Of a stretch of DNA of 64,000 bases, positions 1,224 through 20,868 are shown piece after piece. The DNA is from Ciborinia camelliae. Lineage: Eukaryota; Ascomycota; Leotiomycetes; Helotiales; Sclerotiniaceae. The stretch covers positions 2,432,006 to 2,496,005 of the forward strand of contig JANPYM010000002.1 in NCBI GenBank assembly GCA_025890175.1. The letters run 5' to 3'. Position numbers and translations under genes: made by a program. The notes below the pieces were generated by a model that was not told the DNA's origin, made no database searches, and saw only the letters and a program-made list of their open reading frames with translations. Within the stretch, counting starts at the first letter, position 1, and the number at the start of each line of letters is the position of its first letter.

Positions 1224-3194
1224 TCACCAAGTCTCGGCAATATATTGCCCAGCCTCATTCTTCAACTTCCAAAAGTTCTTTGCCTCCTCTCGACCCAGAT
1301 TACCCTTCTCCATGGCAACATCCACAAGTGCCTCCTCAACACCTTCACCCATTCCCTTACTACTACCACAAACAAACACTCTACCGTCCAAAGCATTGAT
1401 GATAAACCAGACCAAATCTGCTTGATGTCGAACTTCATCCTGTACATATTTACCCTTCTGTTTACTTCCTGGTCTTCGACTTTGAACGACCTTCTTAACT
1501 TCCGATTCATGTACACCCCATTCACCAGAATATAATTCATCGAGAAGAGAATCCCTAACTCCTTGAAGAACCCAAACTTTATTTGCGCAATTGGCATTCT
1601 TGAGGCGACGTTGGACAAATCCTCTGAATGGAGCAACTCCTACACCTGCACCAATTAAAAGCATAGGTCCATCAGAAACAAATTCTCTGGCGAGAGGATT
1701 TGCCATCAATCCTTTGAACATTGGGATTCTAAGGTTGACCTTTTTTCCTTCGTTTTGTGCTGCGATGAATTTTCTTGCTTGTCGTTCAAAGAATCCTGAT
1801 CCAACACCAATACGATTTCCCCCACGCCAGTTATTTGTTTCATGAACAGTGACTGCAATTTCGATGAGTCGACTACAACCTTCAACTGGTACACAATTTT
1901 CCTGAGGATCATTGGACATTGAGTAGAATCGAGGTCTCAATGTTTCAAGTACCGAGAGAAGATGATCGAGAGGTGGTTTACTGGATGTGAATGCGTTTAG
2001 AAGTTGAGGGATTGTGATATGTGGTCCAGTTCTGAAATCGCAGAATGTTCCTTGTCCTTCTCCTGAGCAAAGATATAATAAAATCTTCTTCTCTTCTGGG
2101 TCGATGGCATATTCGGCGAGTAATCGTAAAATCTTCTTGTTAGGTGGATATGATTGGATATCAGAACACCAAGTTAATAAGTCGCGTCTGGTTGTGATTA
2201 ATTCTCTTGGTTTATCATCTCCCCAAATTGTAGGCCATCTGCCAGAATGGGTGTTCAATAAGATCTTTCGATCACGAAGATATCTTGGGATAGATAACAA
2301 ATCCAATAATTCTTCAACCATTGACTCTTCATTTGGTGCCATGACACCAATTGCACCACCGACCTTAAAATCAACCCCACCTTCTTCCGGGTAATCCGTA
2401 ACATCCAAATCAAAATGATATGTTCTCTTCTCAGCACCAGGTTTAGTCAACTCTCTAGCATTAAATATTCTCGCCGAGTAAACTTCGTAAGGTGGATGTG
2501 GTTGAACGAATGAAGGTGGTTGAATTTTGGTGTCGACATTTAACTTGGCATGATGTGGCGTGAAATCAATCGAACCATTTTGCATACCAATTCCGGAATC
2601 AATATTCGAAGTGACATTTTTGATATCTGCGGCATCTGCGACATCCATAGGGGGTTCGACATTGATCGCTCCTCTGTTTTCATTGACCTCCAAAGATCCC
2701 ATACTTTTGACAATATCCCGAACCTTCTCCTCCTTCAGAGAGAGAATATCCATCGTCTTCGGTGGCAAATCTGGTAGACTCGTCAATCGTGTAGGAATCA
2801 ATTCAATCTTTAAAGCCAAGCTCTTATAAGCATCGTTATCTGGCAATCTTGGTCTTTCATATGTGAGTCCATCTGTTTTGGTAATTGCCATACAGCAACC
2901 CCCACCACAGCATTGTTCTACCAATTTTGTGCCCGCCTCCCCAATAATTCTTCGCATATCGGTAGCATTTTGTGATATAAGTTTGGTTGAAGCTCGGCGA
3001 CGACGTGGCTGGATCTCTTCGGGTTCGAGGTCGGAGGAAGAAGAGGAGGAATAAGTGAGGGAGGGGACTTGAGAGACCTGGGAGCGGGGTGACTCAGGTT
3101 GTGGTTCTTGCGGTATACAATGGGATGTAGTAGCCATTCTTGAGATTTGAGGACGCGACATTGTTCGAAGTAGAATTGTTGAACGACGGAGCAT
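1224..3194 (-). CDS. FAD/NADPH-binding oxidoreductase of the cytochrome P450 reductase / sulfite reductase flavoprotein type, lacking an FMN domain
   Basis: This is a single-exon gene of 656 residues when read from the ATG at 3194. The frame stays open to 3284, but the 3194 start gives an Arg/Ser-rich presequence (MLRRSTILLRTMSRPQ) that looks like a mitochondrial target signal; that localisation is inference. Diflavin-reductase hallmarks are visible: RFYSMSND near residue 420 (the RxYS FAD-pyrophosphate motif), GAGVGVAPFRG near 513 (the NADPH-binding glycine loop), VCGSS near 606, and a C-terminal Trp that could stack on the flavin as in P450 reductase. The connecting domain upstream is also recognisable. 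There is no flavodoxin-like FMN domain. In its place is a short N-terminal region with a CCGGGCC cysteine cluster near residue 93. The protein therefore probably passes electrons from NADPH through FAD to an unknown acceptor, perhaps through a metal centre at the cysteines. The fold assignment is fairly sure; the substrate is unknown. Confidence 0.85.
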   Translation of the reverse strand: MLRRSTILLRTMSRPQISRMATTSHCIPQEPQPESPRSQVSQVPSLTYSSSSSSDLEPEEIQPRRRRASTKLISQNATDMRRIIGEAGTKLVEQCCGGGCCMAITKTDGLTYERPRLPDNDAYKSLALKIELIPTRLTSLPDLPPKTMDILSLKEEKVRDIVKSMGSLEVNENRGAINVEPPMDVADAADIKNVTSNIDSGIGMQNGSIDFTPHHAKLNVDTKIQPPSFVQPHPPYEVYSARIFNARELTKPGAEKRTYHFDLDVTDYPEEGGVDFKVGGAIGVMAPNEESMVEELLDLLSIPRYLRDRKILLNTHSGRWPTIWGDDKPRELITTRRDLLTWCSDIQSYPPNKKILRLLAEYAIDPEEKKILLYLCSGEGQGTFCDFRTGPHITIPQLLNAFTSSKPPLDHLLSVLETLRPRFYSMSNDPQENCVPVEGCSRLIEIAVTVHETNNWRGGNRIGVGSGFFERQARKFIAAQNEGKKVNLRIPMFKGLMANPLAREFVSDGPMLLIGAGVGVAPFRGFVQRRLKNANCANKVWVLQGVRDSLLDELYSGEWGVHESEVKKVVQSRRPGSKQKGKYVQDEVRHQADLVWFIINALDGRVFVCGSSKGMGEGVEEALVDVAMEKGNLGREEAKNFWKLKNEAGQYIAETW

Positions 3195-6100
3195 ATACCA
3201 ATGTACAAGTATGTGGGATGAGGACGGAGAAACGGAAGAAGGAAAAAGGCAGTCGAGCCAGGTTTTTTGAGGTGTGCTAGTCAATGCAACTTTTGAGTTT
3301 ATACGGCCGTTAGTATTGATTGATCGTCGGAATGGGATGATGTAAGAATTGACTGAAATCGATCGAATCGATTGTGTGGGTTGGTGGTAGATAGGCAGGT
3401 ATGGGATTTGCTTGATTTGAATTTGAATGATTGTTATATTATGACTGTAGGTTTCCCAATGGTTTTTGATTGTATCAGAATGAATGAGGGTTGGAATAAA
3501 TAAATATATTATTAATTGATGAATTGGTGATGAATTTTCCTTTTCTTAAAGTAAAAAAGTCAATTTTCAATATGAAGTGGCGCGGGAAACGGAGAGTTGA
3601 TATCTTATGGATTTTATGCTGGGGTTCCTCTATGTTGGTCGATGTTGGTGGATGTTGATTAGGCCACCGTATGATGAAAAAGGACCTAGTCCGACACCGG
3701 GATTGATTAGCCTTACGAAGAAATATATGTAAGCTTTTATCATGTTTCACTCTTTGCTCATCATGTATGATCAGGAAATCTACCTTGGCTTACGGAGAAT
3801 TGTTAAATATTACAATCATATGCATCAAGTTTATACAAGCATGATGAGAAGATATCATTCATTCTCTTTTGATTATGGCTAAGATTGTCTGACTTACCTC
3901 TTTTATCCAAATCAATTATCATCACATCAGCTCAACCTTGATCACTCTAATCCATCCATTCAACACATACATACTCCATAAATACATACATGACCCGATC
4001 GACATTCATCTCTCCTCTCCTTCTATTAAAACCTAGAATTACCCATTCGGGGGATATAAGCCCTTTTAAGTAGGTATATCGGGTAAAGGCAATACCTACC
4101 CTCTTGCTGTTCATAGTTAGTACGGAGTATACACTTACCATAAGCCACATTGGGGAAAATATTCCCTGTCATAAGCAAGCCTGGTCATGGACCTTGTCAT
4201 GAAATGGGTCTTATCACTCGTTACTTATCAGATCCGAAATGTGGGCTAAGGTTCCGAGGGAATGAGATTCGGTAAGTGGTAATTGATCTGGCATGATGAA
4301 TGATATGATATATCATATGAGAGACGGTAAGATGATGGGGTGGGAAAATGAGCTGAAGAATGGATAGTATTGTATATCGATAATTCAGTACAAGAATAAG
4401 GTATGAATATGAATAGAGCTACTCTAAACACTACCTACCTGTCTTTGGGCGGGAAAGTTATTTGGACACTGATACCTAGTATTTCCACGGATAAATACCT
4501 ACCTACATACATACCTTCCTCTACCCCCTTTCCTCAATTTCCTCACCAATACATGCACAATGCACGATACACATTGGATGTTTCTTCTTACACCACCATC
4601 CATCATCATCCATCCCACTCACATGCAAATCTTCAAATTCTTTCCTCGGAGTCGCCTAAATTCTTAGTATTATACGTACAGGATGGATCTTCAAACGAAC
4701 AATAAATAAATAACCTCGGGCTTCAAGGGTAACCCAACCCAACTGACTCAGGTCTGAGACATGGCTTTTATGCTAGACAATGCCAACCTACGAAAACGCC
4801 AAGCGGAGAATACCTAGAATGAATAGAATACGGGGAGGGGTTGGTTTGATCTGATAACTTTAAATTCCTATGAAGCGAAACAAAACAAAAAAAGGAAGAT
4901 ATGTGGACATACATACCTACTCCGTATAGGCTACAGTATTGAATCTTGATGAATAAGTGAGTCGGTGAATGACCTACCGATACTCAAGTCTGGTCGGTCC
5001 ACGGTATCATTCATAACTTCCCAACAAAAAAAATCATCCTTGATCTATCCCATCCATCCATTCATTCATCACATCACATCACATCCAACCGGGCCATACA
5101 CCTCACATTACATTCCACCTGCAGCTCCATCGGGCATGAAGAAATGAAGAAATGAAGAAACGGAACACACCTAGTACATAATCTCATCAGATTAGATCAA
5201 TCAGATTAGATCCTACTTTATCTTACCTTACTTACCTTACCTTACTTTACTTCTCCCCCTACCTCAACTACCTTGGCATACATGTAACTATAATCCTCCA
5301 TTCGTCTATTCTAGACATATTTTTATTTCCATTTTTGTTTTTGTTTTTATTTTGATCAACTGCTAATAAGTTCTAGGTAACCGTACCAAAGTTCTAACGA
5401 ACTATATATACGATTTATATTACCTATTCATAGGTAGGTACCTATCTAGGTATTATTAGGTAGATAGCAGTATTCTATATATATGGAAGACCTAGTCAGT
5501 CCATATCGACTTCAGTTTATCAATACTTATAAGTTACATGACATAACCTCCTAAGGACCTAGCCTCTAGGTACCTAGTAGTTCAACTTTTTCTTTTCTTT
5601 TCCTTTCTCCTCTCCTCTGCTCTTCCATGTAATGTAATTGTATATAAGGGAACGGCGATACGATAGATGGATATTTTCCGTGTCCAGTTGCCAGGGCTTG
5701 CCGATCAGTGAGTTGGAACCTCTTTGTGATCGCTCGCTAATAGTTAGCTATACTGCATTGTCCTTGTCCTTGTCCGTGTCCTGAGAACATAACGCGTGGT
5801 TACGACTCATGTTATCGAATCAAATAAGGAAGTGATGAATTTGAATTGCGATTGAATGGAATATTGATTACAATTGTGAGGGTTGGTGTTGGTGTTGAGA
5901 TGATCAGATTGTTGGATGTTGGATCTGGGGTTTGGATGTTTCAATGTTTGTCTTGTTTTGTTTGGTTTTGGAATGGGATGGGGGCCGAATTCGGAGATGA
6001 GATGAGATGATCTGATATGATATGATTGATATGATTAGATAAGAATGGGTGAGACGTTGAGTGAGACAAAGAAAAAAAAATAAAGTCGATATGATATGAC

Positions 6101-15200: not shown

Positions 15201-17259
15201 CTCTATTTCCGTTTAGTTTACCTCGTTATGTTTTGAGTGTCTTTTATGAACTAGAAGTTAGACAGACTCTGCCCCGCGAAAATAGTCATAGTCCTTATGG
15301 CTCAATCGATTTCTGACCAGTCTCACTGTACACCACACACTTCTTGACCGGCAGTATAAAATACTTTAAGATCCATCACTTAGATATTACATGGGCACAA
15401 GACCCCAAAACAAAGGGTAGCATGAATTCTAGTAAGCTTGGAAAATCTACATGGTTCTCTCAGACAAGCGTATATCGAATCTTAGAGCATAGTTGAGAGA
15501 TTTAGTATTTTATTACGAAAACTTCAAGTTGTTTGTCTCAAATGAGATATTATTGCCGTCATACATTGTCCTAGCTTGACTCGATGCAAAAAAGGTATTT
15601 CGACAGCAGTGATTGAGACATCAGAAGATGACCGTACACTAAAAGGACCGTGATTGATTGATAATCTTGTCCACTTGAACATGATGTCCGAAAGGCCTCC
15701 ATTTCAAACAAACAAGTTTTCCATTAAACTACAAGATAGGCCTTTTGATGTTGCAGTATACCCACATACATAGAGATCGGGCTCAATACTTTTATAGACC
15801 TCCCTTCTATTCGCAATACACACATGAACTCACCCACCATCCATGCCCCTCTCATATACTGCACCAAACTTAGTGAATTGACTGGATGAGCAAGGCATTG
15901 GAATTTTCTCGGCTTTTGAGTTCCACGTCGCAGAGACTGCATAAAAAGGGTGGAAATCCAGATAGGAGGATTGTTGAGGTATAGTTTTATCAATTGATAC
16001 ACCCATGGCAAGACTTGCATGAACAATTCAGAAATGGACGATCTGCTGAATCAAGGAAAACTTGCTTTGACGGTCAGAAAAGGTCAGATTATCATATTTC
16101 CTGGTATATATCATCCACACTGTCATTTCTTTTGTTAATATTGACTTACATATTAGTTTAGATGATAATAATTTCATGAGATTGGTGAACTTGCAGGACC
16201 AAGTTTATATTGGCGAGATTGAAAGCAGCAGGAGTGGAAGGGGAAAAGGAGAACTGGCCAACTTGACAAGGCAATCTACAGCTGTGTGATTCAGTATAGG
16301 CAGGAAGGCGCGCTTCTATGCTTAATGGTGTGGTAAAGTTGTCGATATGAAGAGTGAATAGATAGCGAATCGGCTTTACAAAGATCCATCTTTAACAGAC
16401 CAAATATGTCTACCAAAATTCACTTGAGGGGGTTAGGTTGTTGTGAATGGGCTCCAGCATTTTGAATAAACTGGTGAATGTGGAGCCATTGCCTCAAGCC
16501 CCTCAATATTTAAGGAATCGCTTTCCCTAGAAATTCGAGTCCAAAAACATTTACAATACCAAGTGAAAGAGATGACAAAGCTATGGTGATCAGCAAACTA
16601 GCGTTAATTTAACCCGGTATAAACACAACTTCAAGTTGGAAAAAATTAAAACTTCGATGATATTTACTGGACATTTTGAGATGGAAAATGCAAATTAGAA
16701 AGACAACAAAAAGGCCTGTCGGTATATCAAGGACGGCAGTGGCCTATATGGAACTTAATGGGATGACAATCACAATACACAAGGACAGAATACAACTCTC
16801 TTCCTGGTAAGTAATCAATTGACGGACTTTTTGACAAAACTTGCCTCAGACTCGAAGCAAGTTATAAAGATAGAAATTGCTCAGAGGCCAGGAACTCATA
16901 AAATCAGCTCCCTGATACTTTAAAGTTGATTTTGAGTTCGTGGACTCTTACAGGTAGCTAGGTCTTTTATATGCGCATACGCCGCCTAGAGTGCTAGGAT
17001 ACCATCATCTTTAAGAAACAGATTCACCTACGAGCTCATGATTCATATGTTCAATACCTTTCTGGTCCGCAGCTTCACTGTCGAACAAGCAAGCAATGAC
17101 AAAGAATGGTTGAATTCACTTGATAAAATTCATATATTGTACAGTATGCCCAGGTCTGTTGCCGTTTCCTGTTCCGAATAAATCCAAAGAGATAGTTGGG
17201 GGATTCGCAGAGCAGGCCAAAGCCATTTACTCATACGACAGTTGGTGTGATATCTGAGA

Positions 17260-17295
<36 letters not shown>

Positions 17296-17838
17296 TTGTT
17301 ACTTTCGTTCAAATTATTTATGTAGACCAACCCATCTGTCTAAGAAAATGGTGGCGATGATTGTTCATATCAAAATTAACCTTGGAACGCATTCACATCG
17401 TTAATTTTAAACCTCGAAGGCCAAAAGACTTCTCATAGTATCGCAGGCCCATTTTCTCAATCAGTAAATGATGCGGAACATAATCTTTTTACATGAGAAA
17501 ACAATACCACCAGCTCTAACGCAAAGTGTTCCGGTGGCTCAGTACGAAAATTTCACCATCAATGTACAGCGGGCACTTGCCATGATCAATATGAATTGGA
17601 CTCTTCTCGTAGTGAGAAAATAAACCCATTACCATACTCACATAAAAATTCATCACCACAACTCAAGACAATCACCTCAACTGTTACCAAATATCAAACC
17701 CCAATCCAAACAAGGAAAGAACCACCCCTTACCAGCCCCTCTCACCCCACCTTCCCCGACACCACTACCACACCACTCACTTAATTCCACCTACATAATC
17801 CCAAATAAACAATCCTCATGCATCAAACAACACCAAAA
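12256..17838. other. Long intergenic region without a supported gene
   Basis: Over about 5.6 kb the open frames are all under about 100 codons, on both strands, without domains, splice-consistent partners or coding-like wobble. Visible structure is limited to a short tandem duplication of GAGCTGGCGAGTTG near 14274-14300 and a TA dinucleotide tract at about 17261-17293. The region probably is silent or carries non-coding transcripts that cannot be recognised from sequence. Confidence 0.55.
17261..17293. repeat. TA dinucleotide microsatellite
   Basis: About 16 uninterrupted AT/TA units. Confidence 0.9.
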
Positions 17839-17966
17839 GGTCGCGTAGCTCAGCCGGTTAGAGCACCGTACTAATAATGCGGGGGTCGTGAGTGTAAGTT
17901 ATCATCTGAATATCCTTCCATGTATCATTACTAATTATCTTGTGTAGTCAAGCCTCATCGTGATCA
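17839..17966 (+). tRNA. tRNA-Ile (anticodon AAU) with a 54-bp spliceosomal-type insertion in the T-loop
   Basis: All parts of a cytosolic tRNA-Ile are present: acceptor strand GGTCGCG (17839-17845), TA, D-stem GCTC/GAGC with GG in the D-loop, anticodon stem CCGTA/TGCGG around loop CTAATAA (anticodon AAT at 17873-17875), a 5-nt variable loop, T-stem GTGAG (17888-17892) and CTCAT (17954-17958), 3' acceptor strand CGTGATC and discriminator A (17966). Between T54 and T55 lies a 54-bp segment (17894-17947) that begins GTAAGT, contains TACTAAT with its branch A 13 nt before the end, and ends TGTAG. Removing it gives a 74-nt tRNA with T-loop TTCAAGC, a perfect match to TTCRANY. Known eukaryotic nuclear tRNA introns sit at 37/38 instead. 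The A box (TAGCTCAGCCGG) is intact but the B box is split. Three G-U wobbles (one in the T-stem, two in the acceptor) could mean mild decay. The structure is clear; whether the RNA is made and spliced is not known. Confidence 0.88.
17894..17947 (+). other. GT-AG intron-like segment inside the tRNA T-loop
   Basis: 54 bp with 5' site GTAAGT, branch-like TACTAAT at 17929-17935 and acceptor TGTAG. The length is the same as that of two mRNA introns in this window (7338-7391 and 63421-63474), and the signals match them. It has no resemblance to a tRNA-endonuclease intron, which would need a bulge-helix-bulge at the anticodon. Confidence 0.85.
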
Positions 17967-17985
17967 TTTCTTTTTTTGTTTTTTT
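17967..17985 (+). terminator. RNA polymerase III terminator T-run behind the tRNA
   Basis: Starting directly after the discriminator base are runs of three, seven and seven T residues separated by single other bases. This is a standard polymerase III stop signal and supports that the gene was, or is, a polymerase III unit that ends where the structural model ends. Confidence 0.8.
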
Positions 17986-19376
17986 GAGGCTCGATGGGGA
18001 GGTTTTGGAAGCTGGTTGTATTTTGAGTTGGGGCTGCCAGTAGAGTGCTGTTCTAGGAGTACCTAGGTTGGGTTGAATGAGGTCAAACGCTCGATATTAT
18101 CATGGCAAGAATTCTACAAAGGATGTAAGATCTTATACTAGGTATATAAAGCATAAGGTTAACGAACCTGTGAATGTTGGAAGGTCCTTGATGATTTTGC
18201 CTGCGTCGATATTTTCCCATCGATCTAAGTAAAGTTGATAGATTGTTGAGAGATATCATCATTTTTGCCACCACTCATTACACTTTCAACGAATTGTGAA
18301 TTGCATTATCGTCGATTCACATATAAATTACGTTGGACTGTCGTCAGGCATCGCTGATGAATGATGATATTGCGAACAGATTGACGAGAAAGAAACCAAT
18401 TCATCTTGGATCGCAATTGTGATGGTGATATCCAGGGTCCCGCCTAGTGAACCAATTGGTTAGACATTTTTGGATGGTAATATCTGAACAACTTGATGTA
18501 GAAGTTAACATACTATATGCTGATAGCGTATTAAGGTGAATAATATATATTCGTGGCTCGGAAGGTTTTATCAAACCACAATGGGAGCCCAAATTAATTC
18601 CAACATTAACATTCCCCACAAAAGATATTTATCACGAGAACTAAATTATGAGAATGAGGGTCAATTTTGAATAAGTGTGCAATATGGGGGACTTCGAGAT
18701 AATGGCTTGAAAAAAGATTGTGGATTGATTGTACTGTGAGAAAAAGAGAGCCAAAATAGGCAGTGTCGCTTGACCCCACCTACCCCTATCGGACTTTGTC
18801 TATGCTGACTAGGAAAGAGAATGAAGGTACCTCTTTTGTATGCCGTGTCACAGGAGCTCGAGGTATCCTGGGGGTCAATAGTTGCAGGTAATATCAGGCC
18901 ATATCATTTTAAAAGAAGACTAATCATTCCGATGGCACACGGGTTTTTAGAATGTAAAACAGTGTTGTGATGTGATGATGACGTGGCATCAAGACCAGAC
19001 TATGGAATTTATATTCATCTATCTGCTCCTCATTCTAGCCCTGAAACTGAGCCATGTCGTAGGGTACATATCCGGTTGAAAGGGAGCGAAGGCAAGGAAT
19101 ATTTCATTAAAGGCCCTCATCTAGAAAGGTCTGATGTTGAAGTTCCACTCGGATAATCTCTGCATTGATATCATCGCTCATGTTACGTTAAAGTTCAAAG
19201 GAATGCTGATCAGCTGGTCATTTTGCAACTGTCAGTCGTTTAACGAATCTAGAGGGTCCTCCCATAGTTTTTGCGATATTATATCGAAGGAAAGTCTTCA
19301 TAATAATTAAATTGTATTGATCAGAGAAATGGCATTGGATTTCAGAATCTTAAGTCTGTCATACGGGTGTCTGATA
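17986..19376. other. Intergenic, no supported gene
   Basis: About 1.4 kb between the tRNA and the Sel1-like gene. I see no coding region or strong repeat. Confidence 0.55.
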
Positions 19377-20566
19377 TCAATCCGCGATGAAACTAGTTTT
19401 CATTTTTACCGCTTCGTCGTGAACTTCAGGGAGTGCCTCAGCCCGCTTCAACCATTTCATACCCTCTTCCTTTTGACCCTGAGATTTACATATGGAAGCC
19501 AAGTTCAACATACTCAATCCAAATCCACCTTCAGCTGCCACTTCAAACCATTCTTTAGCATACCCGTACCTTCGGTTTGCCGGCTTTTTGTGGGCTTGAT
19601 CGCCATATTTTGATAACTCAATGGCACCAAGATTGTGACATGCTTCAGGAATGCCTGCACCAGCCGCTTTAAGTAAATAAACCATTCTATCATCCTCCTC
19701 ACCAGGACCCGTGTGTTTAGAGAGATAAAAGAATGCTGAAGGATAATCGAGATCTAATGCTGCTTTTTTTAAAACCTGCTTTGCGGCTTCTTTATCAGAC
19801 TTTTCGAGAATCAAGCCAAGAACAACGAGTGCCTCCGCAGCTCCTTCGAAAGTTGGCACTTCTGGTCCGGAAACAGCTTTCTCCAACCAATCTCGAGCTT
19901 CAATTTCCTTTCCTTGACTGTAAAGAATTTGACCAAGTAGTCCCATAGCCTGGACGTTCTGCTCCTTCTTTGCTAAAATACCTAGACGTTTAAAAAAACT
20001 TCCAGACCTTGCGGTATGTAGCTGGTTCCTTCGGAAAGCATCAGATACAACCTCTAATGTAGCCGCGGCATCACCCATCACTGAAGCCAAGTCTATCAAC
20101 CTTCTTCCTAGTGCTTTTTGTGCCAGTTCTTTGCATCTCCCCAACGAGATAGATAATTGTGTCACATCAGATCCCGTGAGACCGTGCTCTAAGGAATATT
20201 AGTATCTTATATACGCCACAAAAATTGCAACTTACTATTGCAAACTTCAGTCTCCCAACCTGGCTTTGCTTTCCGATGGCAAATTTGATAATCTCGTAGG
20301 AATTCCATGGCTTTGTAAGGGTCTAGTTTTAAGACTCCAGCTTTATGATCCGTCACTAGGATAAAAAGTGGCGGGAGAGCATCAGGAGAATCAATTGGTA
20401 CCGTCTTCCGCATCTTCACTGGATCAGCAGCATTTCTCTTTGCTACTGTTTGCTTTCTTGATGGCTTGACACTGGTGGCAAGTAATCTGGGGGTAGTATG
20501 GATTGACCTTTGGTTTAACAATCGGAGGCCATGTCGAAAATGAGGAATTGCTCTGGAAGTCGACAT
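19377..20566 (-). CDS. Mitochondrial Sel1/TPR-like repeat protein
   Basis: Two exons, 20566-20236 and 20188-19377, joined across a 47-bp intron that starts GTAAGT, carries TACTAAT and ends CTTAG; the product has 380 residues. The N-terminus (MSTSRAIPHFRHGLRLL, then IHTTPRLLATS) is Arg- and Ser-rich without acidic residues and has the look of a cleavable mitochondrial presequence. From about residue 110 the protein consists of helix-pair repeats with alternating Ala, Gly and Leu (for example AKEWFEVAAEGGFGLSMLNL and VYLLKAAGAGIPEACHNLG), typical of Sel1-like/TPR repeats that scaffold protein assembly. Yeast Mss2, a TPR protein of cytochrome oxidase assembly, is a possible counterpart, but this is only a suggestion from architecture and length. 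The gene shares a divergent promoter of about 300-400 bp with the U3-associated gene. Confidence 0.8.
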
Positions 20567-20868
20567 GATTCCAGGTTTGTATATAGACGATCAAATAATG
20601 TCACCTCAGTCAATGATGGATTTGATATCTCGTCAACAATTCAACAATTCAAGAATCACAAGTTTGAAGTTAACCAACCTTACATGACAGGGCAAGCTTC
20701 TGCCATCCTGGAAGCAAGAAGGCGGTGAACCCAATAAAATCTAGCGTCATAGCTTTTTCCCGGGCACTAAAGAAATCTCACAGATTTTTTACAGCTTGTT
20801 CTACAGACAAGGCCCACACACACCTTTTACAAATTATTTAAAGTTCAACCCAATACAGGTTTTTCTGC
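20567..20868. promoter_or_regulatory. Divergent promoter between two housekeeping genes
   Basis: The only space between the oppositely oriented Sel1-like and U3-associated genes, so both promoters must lie here or reach up to the likely downstream start at 20974. No sharp element is visible. Confidence 0.5.

What the first reader, a model, noticed from the sequence alone, without database searches (positions are those of the whole stretch)
17839..17966. A tRNA-Ile gene split in its T-loop by a spliceosomal-type GT-AG intron
Seen: both halves of a complete tRNA-Ile(AAU) flank a 54-bp segment lying exactly between positions 54 and 55. It begins GTAAGT, has TACTAAT with its A 13 nt from the end, and ends TGTAG, and its length is the same as that of two mRNA introns here. 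Precise removal restores T-loop TTCAAGC and a 74-nt cloverleaf with every stem paired, followed by a polymerase III T-run. Known: nuclear tRNA introns of fungi sit at 37/38 and are removed by the tRNA endonuclease through an anticodon-region structure; this segment has neither the position nor the structure. mRNA-type introns are known in U6 and a few other non-coding RNAs. Inference: either spliceosomal processing of a tRNA precursor, or an intron-insertion scar in a tRNA gene.
Basis: partly seen in the sequence, partly recalled or inferred. Interest (0 to 1): 0.93.

Follow-up and report, generated by a model that had tools for sequence, protein, structure and literature searches.

The report
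mRNA-type intron inside a fungal tRNA
A fungal gene for a transfer RNA that carries isoleucine is interrupted, at a place where fungal tRNA introns are not normally found, by a 54-base segment that looks just like the introns of protein-coding genes, so that this tRNA, if it is still in use, would depend on the cell's mRNA-splicing machinery.

Summary
17839-17893 plus 17948-17966 form a complete 74-nt tRNA-Ile(AAU); ARAGORN finds it only with 17894-17947 removed. The 54-nt insert begins GTAAGT, has TACTAAT near its end and ends TAG, exactly at the borders the tRNA fixes; 5 of 2,000,000 simulated 54-mers met a looser form of this signature. The tRNA is real: 21 changes against the main tRNA-Ile, 7 stem pairs changed on both sides, 0 of 21 pairs broken. 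Its flanks carry the strand skew of tRNA genes (rank 4 of 45; 0 of 4999 other window positions). Best reading: a U2-type spliceosomal intron inserted between T54 and T55. Whether the gene still works is open. The insert splits the polymerase III B box and I found no substitute. At least seven other tRNA-Ile(AAU) genes with anticodon-loop introns exist, so it may be dispensable. No second case appeared among the 41 tRNA 5' halves that the tool scored. My literature searches listed no report of a spliceosomal intron in a tRNA gene (listings and passages only). No RNA data and no other fungal genome were available.

The parts
17839..17893 (+). 5' exon of tRNA-Ile(AAU), up to T54 (55 nt): acceptor 5' strand, D arm, unsplit anticodon loop CTAATAA, T-stem 5' strand, T54
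   Evidence: ARAGORN on the joined sequence; the only match to it in the genome at E up to 0.001 is itself
17894..17947 (+). 54-nt spliceosomal-type (GT-AG, U2-like) intron between T54 and T55: donor GTAAGT, branch site TACTAAT, acceptor TAG
   Evidence: direct reading; signature scans and chance estimates; one match in the genome at E up to 10, itself
17929..17935 (+). branch-site-like TACTAAT, 12 nt before the end of the insert
   Evidence: direct reading; that this is a branch site is inferred from the recalled fungal consensus
17948..17966 (+). 3' exon of the tRNA (19 nt): rest of T loop, T-stem and acceptor 3' strands, discriminator A
   Evidence: ARAGORN on the joined sequence
17846..17857 (+). 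A box TAGCTCAGCCGG, intact
   Evidence: matches the loose pattern T[AG]N3-5AN2-5GG, as do 35 of 35 distinct tRNA 5' ends
17971..17977 (+). polymerase III terminator-like T7 run
   Evidence: a run of 4 or more T within 40 nt is present in 32 of 44 other tRNA genes
17639..17838 (+). upstream flank, A/C-rich and G-poor, with leader CATCAAACAAC at -18
   Evidence: CATCAAATAAC stands at -18 to -25 in 5 of the 7 other tRNA-Ile leaders printed
17888..17893 (+). second, tandem donor-like GTGAGT formed by the T stem itself; its use would destroy the tRNA
   Evidence: ARAGORN finds no tRNA in that product

Best explanation
This is a genuine nuclear tRNA-Ile(AAU) gene of a fungus related to Botrytis/Sclerotinia into which a spliceosomal (U2-type, GT-AG) intron has been inserted between T54 and T55. 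When the locus is transcribed, the spliceosome can remove the 54 nt (U1 on GTAAGT, U2 on TACTAAT, cut at TAG), which restores T loop TTCAAGC; only then can positions 54 and 55 be modified and the tRNA elbow fold. Shown: the exact anatomy, the structure-preserving divergence of the exons, tRNA-type flanks, no strict bulge-helix-bulge at the borders. Inferred: splicing itself, and origin by reverse splicing or another route of intron gain. Likely lowered: present polymerase III transcription, because the insert splits the B box.
For: The joined sequence is a full tRNA-Ile, the genomic one is not. Donor, branch and acceptor signals sit at borders that the tRNA fixes independently; 5 of 2,000,000 simulated 54-mers meet the loose signature. 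Frame-joining introns: 7 in the window, 47-75 nt, one of 54; 19 by a second rule in 58 held records, 41-123 nt, median 58, some surely false. Exons: 21 of 74 positions differ from the main tRNA-Ile; 8 of 21 pairs differ, 7 on both sides; 21 of 21 still pair; the best of 20,000 random mutants kept 20. Flank skew: 3 of 44 tRNA genes exceed it; 0 of 4999 other window positions reach it. Best leader match among 44 is a tRNA-Ile gene, L034, 18 of 26. Of 10 genome places with donor, branch and AG before TCRANNC (reversed control: 3), only this one has a T stem around it, 5 of 5 pairs against 0-3.
Against: No RNA evidence of transcription or splicing. No B box in the genomic sequence: best score 1.1 in 17839-18366 (+), about usual for such stretches of the window (median 0.6), against 7.8-19.4 for 66 real ones; the junction scores -10.5 and the joined box only 8.5. 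At least seven other genes supply the same anticodon. A competing donor, GTGAGT, lies 6 nt upstream. No second case among the 41 tRNA 5' halves scored. U6 here shows no intron. The flank signature is not universal: 26 of 44 tRNA genes exceed the 99th percentile of other positions. Leader likeness is uneven: the seven tRNA-Ile leaders score 9-18 of 26, other tRNAs 11.4 on average and up to 16.
Confidence: 0.62

Rival explanations
1. Insertion scar: the intron landed recently in a tRNA gene, broke its B box and silenced it. The parts look intact only because there has been no time for decay; the sister genes carry the function.
For: B box split with no substitute found; redundancy; the insert occurs once and no other case among 41 halves scored; four G-U pairs and a weak joined B box.
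Against: The cloverleaf and all three splice signals are undamaged; flank skew is still among the strongest of the tRNA genes held, although it may predate the insertion.
Confidence: 0.28
2. The tRNA copy lies inside a polymerase II transcript (non-coding RNA or untranslated leader), so the intron is an ordinary mRNA intron and the tRNA shape is a fossil.
For: Polymerase II transcription would explain access to the spliceosome and needs no B box (inference; no call shows such a transcript).
Against: Leader, skew and T-run are those of tRNA genes. The next plus-strand frame of 150 aa or more downstream starts at 20842; shorter exons are not excluded. All 21 pairs are kept.
Confidence: 0.06
3. 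An atypical tRNA intron removed by the tRNA splicing endonuclease, as I recall is supposed for the T-arm introns of red algae.
For: T-arm introns at 53/54 exist in Cyanidioschyzon merolae tRNA-Ile(UAU) (PMC9602550, abstract and passages).
Against: No strict 4-bp central helix of a bulge-helix-bulge in 144 registers; the test is weak, since only 422 of 2000 shuffled inserts show one, and relaxed forms were not tried. The precursor is no more stable than its shuffles (z 0.60). The GT, branch and AG signals would be coincidence.
Confidence: 0.02
4. Chance: an unrelated 54-bp insertion or an assembly error that happens to look like an intron.
For: A window is read for oddities, so some selection is at work (no call).
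Against: 5 of 2,000,000 simulated 54-mers reach the loose signature; the contig is 4.3 Mb and 16800-19000 holds no N.
Confidence: 0.02

Closest known systems
mRNA-type intron of fission-yeast U6 snRNA (a polymerase III transcript)
   Same: A spliceosomal intron in a short non-coding RNA made by polymerase III; spliced, and thought to have arisen by reverse splicing (PMC10484740, passages).
   Different: U6 sits at the heart of the spliceosome, which explains its insertion near the catalytic nucleotides; a tRNA does not. I recall (not seen) that the fission-yeast U6 intron holds a B box; here none was found. U6 of this genome matches in one run of 107 nt.
Spliceosomal introns in ascomycete ribosomal RNA genes
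   Same: mRNA-type introns in non-coding genes of ascomycetes (PMC11889510, passages citing Cubero 2000 and the title of Bhattacharya 2000). Those passages propose reverse splicing for group I and Ple.18S1 introns, not expressly for the spliceosomal ones.
   Different: Ribosomal RNA, not tRNA.
T-arm introns of Cyanidioschyzon merolae tRNAs
   Same: Intron in the T arm of a nuclear tRNA (53/54 in tRNA-Ile(UAU)); cmPus4 does not make pseudouridine 55 while it is present (PMC9602550, abstract and passages).
   Different: Further introns in the same gene; the passages seen do not give the intron ends and say that little is known of how they are processed; endonuclease type is recalled.
Canonical 37/38 introns of nuclear tRNA genes
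   Same: The seven other tRNA-Ile(AAU) genes found here have an insert in the anticodon loop.
   Different: Other position, no GT-AG signals in those read, removed by the tRNA endonuclease (recalled).

Membership tests
U2-type spliceosomal intron | 5' GT and consensus donor at the exact border | tested here: met
   GTAAGT at 17894
U2-type spliceosomal intron | branch site at usual distance and AG at the 3' border | tested here: met
   TACTAAT at 17929-17935, TAG at 17945-17947
U2-type spliceosomal intron | length in the range of the genome's mRNA introns | tested here: met
   54 nt; frame-joining introns 47-75 nt (7) or 41-123 nt, median 58 (19)
U2-type spliceosomal intron | removed from RNA by the spliceosome | not testable with these tools
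   no RNA data
Nuclear tRNA gene | complete cloverleaf after removal of the insert | tested here: met
   21 of 21 pairs
Nuclear tRNA gene | intact A box and B box in the DNA | tested here: not met
   A box met; B box split, none found in 17839-18366
Nuclear tRNA gene | terminator T-run and tRNA-type flanks | tested here: met
Canonical endonuclease-type tRNA intron | located at 37/38 | tested here: not met
   lies at 54/55; the anticodon loop is continuous
Ectopic bulge-helix-bulge tRNA intron | two bulges separated by a 4-bp helix at the borders | tested here: not met
   strict form in 0 of 144 registers; relaxed forms not tried; fold z 0.60
Group I or group II self-splicing intron | catalytic core of well over 100 nt (recalled) | tested here: not met
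   54 nt; no Rfam match over the gathering score in the window
Introner-like (multi-copy) intron | near-identical copies elsewhere in the genome | tested here: not met
   1 match at E up to 10, itself; the tool skips very common words

The most novel reading that the evidence does not exclude
A living tRNA whose maturation needs the spliceosome: a polymerase III tRNA precursor with an mRNA-type intron in its T loop, transcribed without a normal B box and spliced by snRNPs, so that supply of this tRNA-Ile is tied to mRNA splicing.
Probability: 0.35. Interest if true: 0.93.

Novelty: new variant of a known kind. Interest (0 to 1): 0.78.

Why it matters
tRNA splicing and mRNA splicing are treated as separate pathways (PMC13149111, passages, class tRNA splicing as spliceosome-independent). 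A spliceosomal intron placed precisely in a tRNA gene would show that gain of such introns can reach tRNA genes, and gives a clean test of whether a polymerase III tRNA precursor can enter the spliceosome. Even if the gene is now silent it is a snapshot of intron gain in a non-coding gene whose borders the cloverleaf fixes to the base. tRNA finders that allow introns only in the anticodon loop miss such genes, as ARAGORN did here.

Tried and rejected
Origin of the insert by duplication of the tRNA: the best local match is TACTAATTAT against the anticodon arm TACTAATAAT, but 76 of 1000 shuffles score as well. Mobile intron copies: none found. A tRNA-Ile(UAU) ancestor: 7 exact pattern matches (reversed control: 8), none a tRNA by ARAGORN. 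Relatives: one exact pattern each gave nothing in viral or prokaryote contigs, as expected; no other fungal genome is held, so conservation could not be tested. A substitute B box: none above 1.1 on the plus strand in 17839-18366, best 0.3 on the reverse strand of 17639-18366. Census of split tRNAs: the tool scored 40 of 119 candidates and listed 41 tRNA 5' halves, all on contigs C1-C5; 34 had an exact 3' half nearby, 2 were already held (L049, L052), and 5 were fetched and are complete. For that pairing I used 36 of the 40 listed 3' halves and dropped the four on C6, where no 5' half was listed. Only tRNA families already found were in the query. ARAGORN labelled four of the seven other tRNA-Ile genes Thr or Trp by placing their introns differently; I assign them to Ile from their shared 5' exon. 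One search was a failed script, repeated corrected. Paper searches (0 papers; 1 listed, not opened) gave nothing.

Full report
What is there. The window is part of a 46.2-Mb genome in 27 contigs (C12:2432006-2496005). The 773-aa frame at 1227-3545 (-) has as its best listed protein match one named from Botryotinia calthae (90% identity over 85%), then one from Rutstroemia (80% over 83%); 120 of 1603 matches were listed. From this one protein I infer a fungus of or near the Sclerotiniaceae (lineage). Positions 17839-17893 and 17948-17966 join into a 74-nt tRNA-Ile(AAU) that ARAGORN recognises with all stems paired; with the 54 nt in place it recognises nothing. Rfam's tRNA model reaches 24.7 bits on the genomic DNA, under its cut-off of 29.

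The insert. It starts GTAAGT and ends TAG, and TACTAAT lies 12 nt before its end: the three signals of a fungal mRNA intron sit where the tRNA structure alone fixes the borders. In the window 1 of 127,892 54-mers has even the looser signature, namely this one; in a Markov simulation 5 of 2,000,000 did. Introns that join reading frames in the window are 47-75 nt long (7 found), one of them 54. One other strict match has frame support, the intron at 20235 (-) between two frames of a TPR gene. The insert occurs once in the genome at E up to 10. Its borders show no strict bulge-helix-bulge (0 of 144 registers, a weak test: 422 of 2000 shuffled inserts have one) and the precursor fold is unremarkable (z 0.60).

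The tRNA. At least seven other tRNA-Ile(AAU) genes were found by pattern (the same seven), with inserts of 29, 38 or 75 nt in the anticodon loop (lengths; placed at 37/38 by reading the exons, ARAGORN puts them at 34-39). The finding's gene has no insert there. Against the main tRNA-Ile sequence it differs at 21 of 74 positions; 8 of 21 pairs differ, 7 of them on both sides, and none is broken. Of 20,000 random mutants with as many changes none kept all 21 pairs (this null ignores mutation bias). The nearest relative held is another tRNA-Ile gene, L037 (58 of 74). So the exons descend from a tRNA that was long under selection for its fold.

The flanks. Among 44 distinct tRNA genes with enough flank held (those in short loci, near locus ends, or identical were left out), upstream flanks are on average C-rich and G-poor and downstream flanks G/T-rich. 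By a combined skew the finding ranks 4th of 45 (5th by upstream, 11th by downstream skew alone), and 0 of 4999 other window positions reach its value; 26 of the 44 tRNA genes exceed the 99th percentile of those positions. The leader CATCAAACAAC stands at -18; CATCAAATAAC stands at -18 to -25 in 5 of the 7 other tRNA-Ile genes. The best of 44 leader matches is L034 (18 of 26), but the seven tRNA-Ile leaders range from 9 to 18 and a tRNA-Thr leader reaches 16. A T7 run begins after 4 nt. This marks the place as a tRNA gene that has been transcribed, but the signature could predate the insertion.

The weak point. The B box, the second internal promoter element, coincides with the T loop (PMC5095917, passages) and is cut by the insert. 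With a matrix from 66 distinct tRNA sequences of this genome, real B boxes score 7.8-19.4, the joined one 8.5, the best place in 17839-18366 only 1.1 (inside the D arm; window stretches of that size have a median best of 0.6), and the junction -10.5. The A box is intact. Polymerase III could use other elements, as U6 does with a TATA box and a B box beyond the terminator, but none was shown here. I therefore keep two outcomes open: a weakly transcribed, spliced tRNA, and a recently silenced gene.

Is it alone? A census by halves listed 41 tRNA 5' halves, all on contigs C1-C5 (40 of 119 candidates scored); 41 of 41 belong to complete genes: 34 have an exact 3' half nearby, so that any insert lies between nucleotide 36 and the last 36, and the other 7 were called complete by ARAGORN with an insert near the anticodon. 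The rest of the genome was not covered in this way. A genome-wide pattern for a GT-AG intron before TCRANNC gave 10 places against 3 for the reversed control; only the finding has a T stem around it (5 of 5 pairs; the other nine 0-3). U6 in this genome matches in one uninterrupted run (85.6 bits; a second match of 29.9 bits is below the cut-off).

Known and new. mRNA-type introns are known in U6 of fission yeast (PMC10484740, passages) and in ribosomal RNA genes of ascomycetes (PMC11889510, passages). T-arm introns are known in a red alga (PMC9602550, abstract and passages). tRNAscan-SE 2.0 calls eukaryotic tRNA genes limited to one intron and describes models of off-site introns for archaea (PMC8450103, passages). 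Searches of 5.39 million open papers for spliceosomal or GT-AG introns in tRNA genes listed 0, 5, 2, 1 and 0 papers. I looked at passages of three of these eight and saw no such report; the other five I know from the listing only. Most subscription papers are missing from that library, so a report may exist. I rate it a new variant of a known kind: a spliceosomal intron in a non-coding gene, but in a tRNA.

Noticed in passing
L046, L051, L059, L069, L070 (G000 C6:1288571, C3:697299, C3:1965561, C3:1967672, C2:2159636): Five tRNA-like genes with organelle-looking bodies (short D loop; AT-rich acceptor in three) on contigs of 1.7-2.4 Mb, most with leaders and T-rich trailers like other tRNA genes, and inserts that ARAGORN puts at 46-87 nt near the anticodon. 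Identity and intron type are unclear; by eye one insert (L059) can be read GT...AG without a good donor.
   Followed up: partly
17888-17899: The T stem of this tRNA (GTGAGT) is itself donor-like directly before the donor GTAAGT, and the tRNA-Ile anticodon loop (CTAAT) resembles a branch site; both could have favoured intron gain here (inference).
   Followed up: partly
flanks of 44 tRNA genes in loci L003-L040: Strand skew around many tRNA genes of this genome (A/C-rich before, G/T-rich after, over about 200 nt), a possible marker of transcribed tRNA loci.
   Followed up: partly
19380-20590 (-): TPR-repeat protein gene with a 47-nt GTAAGT/TACTAAT/TAG intron at 20235, close in signals to the tRNA insert.
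   Followed up: no
about 17262-17292: (AT)n simple repeat some 550 bp upstream of the tRNA.
   Followed up: no
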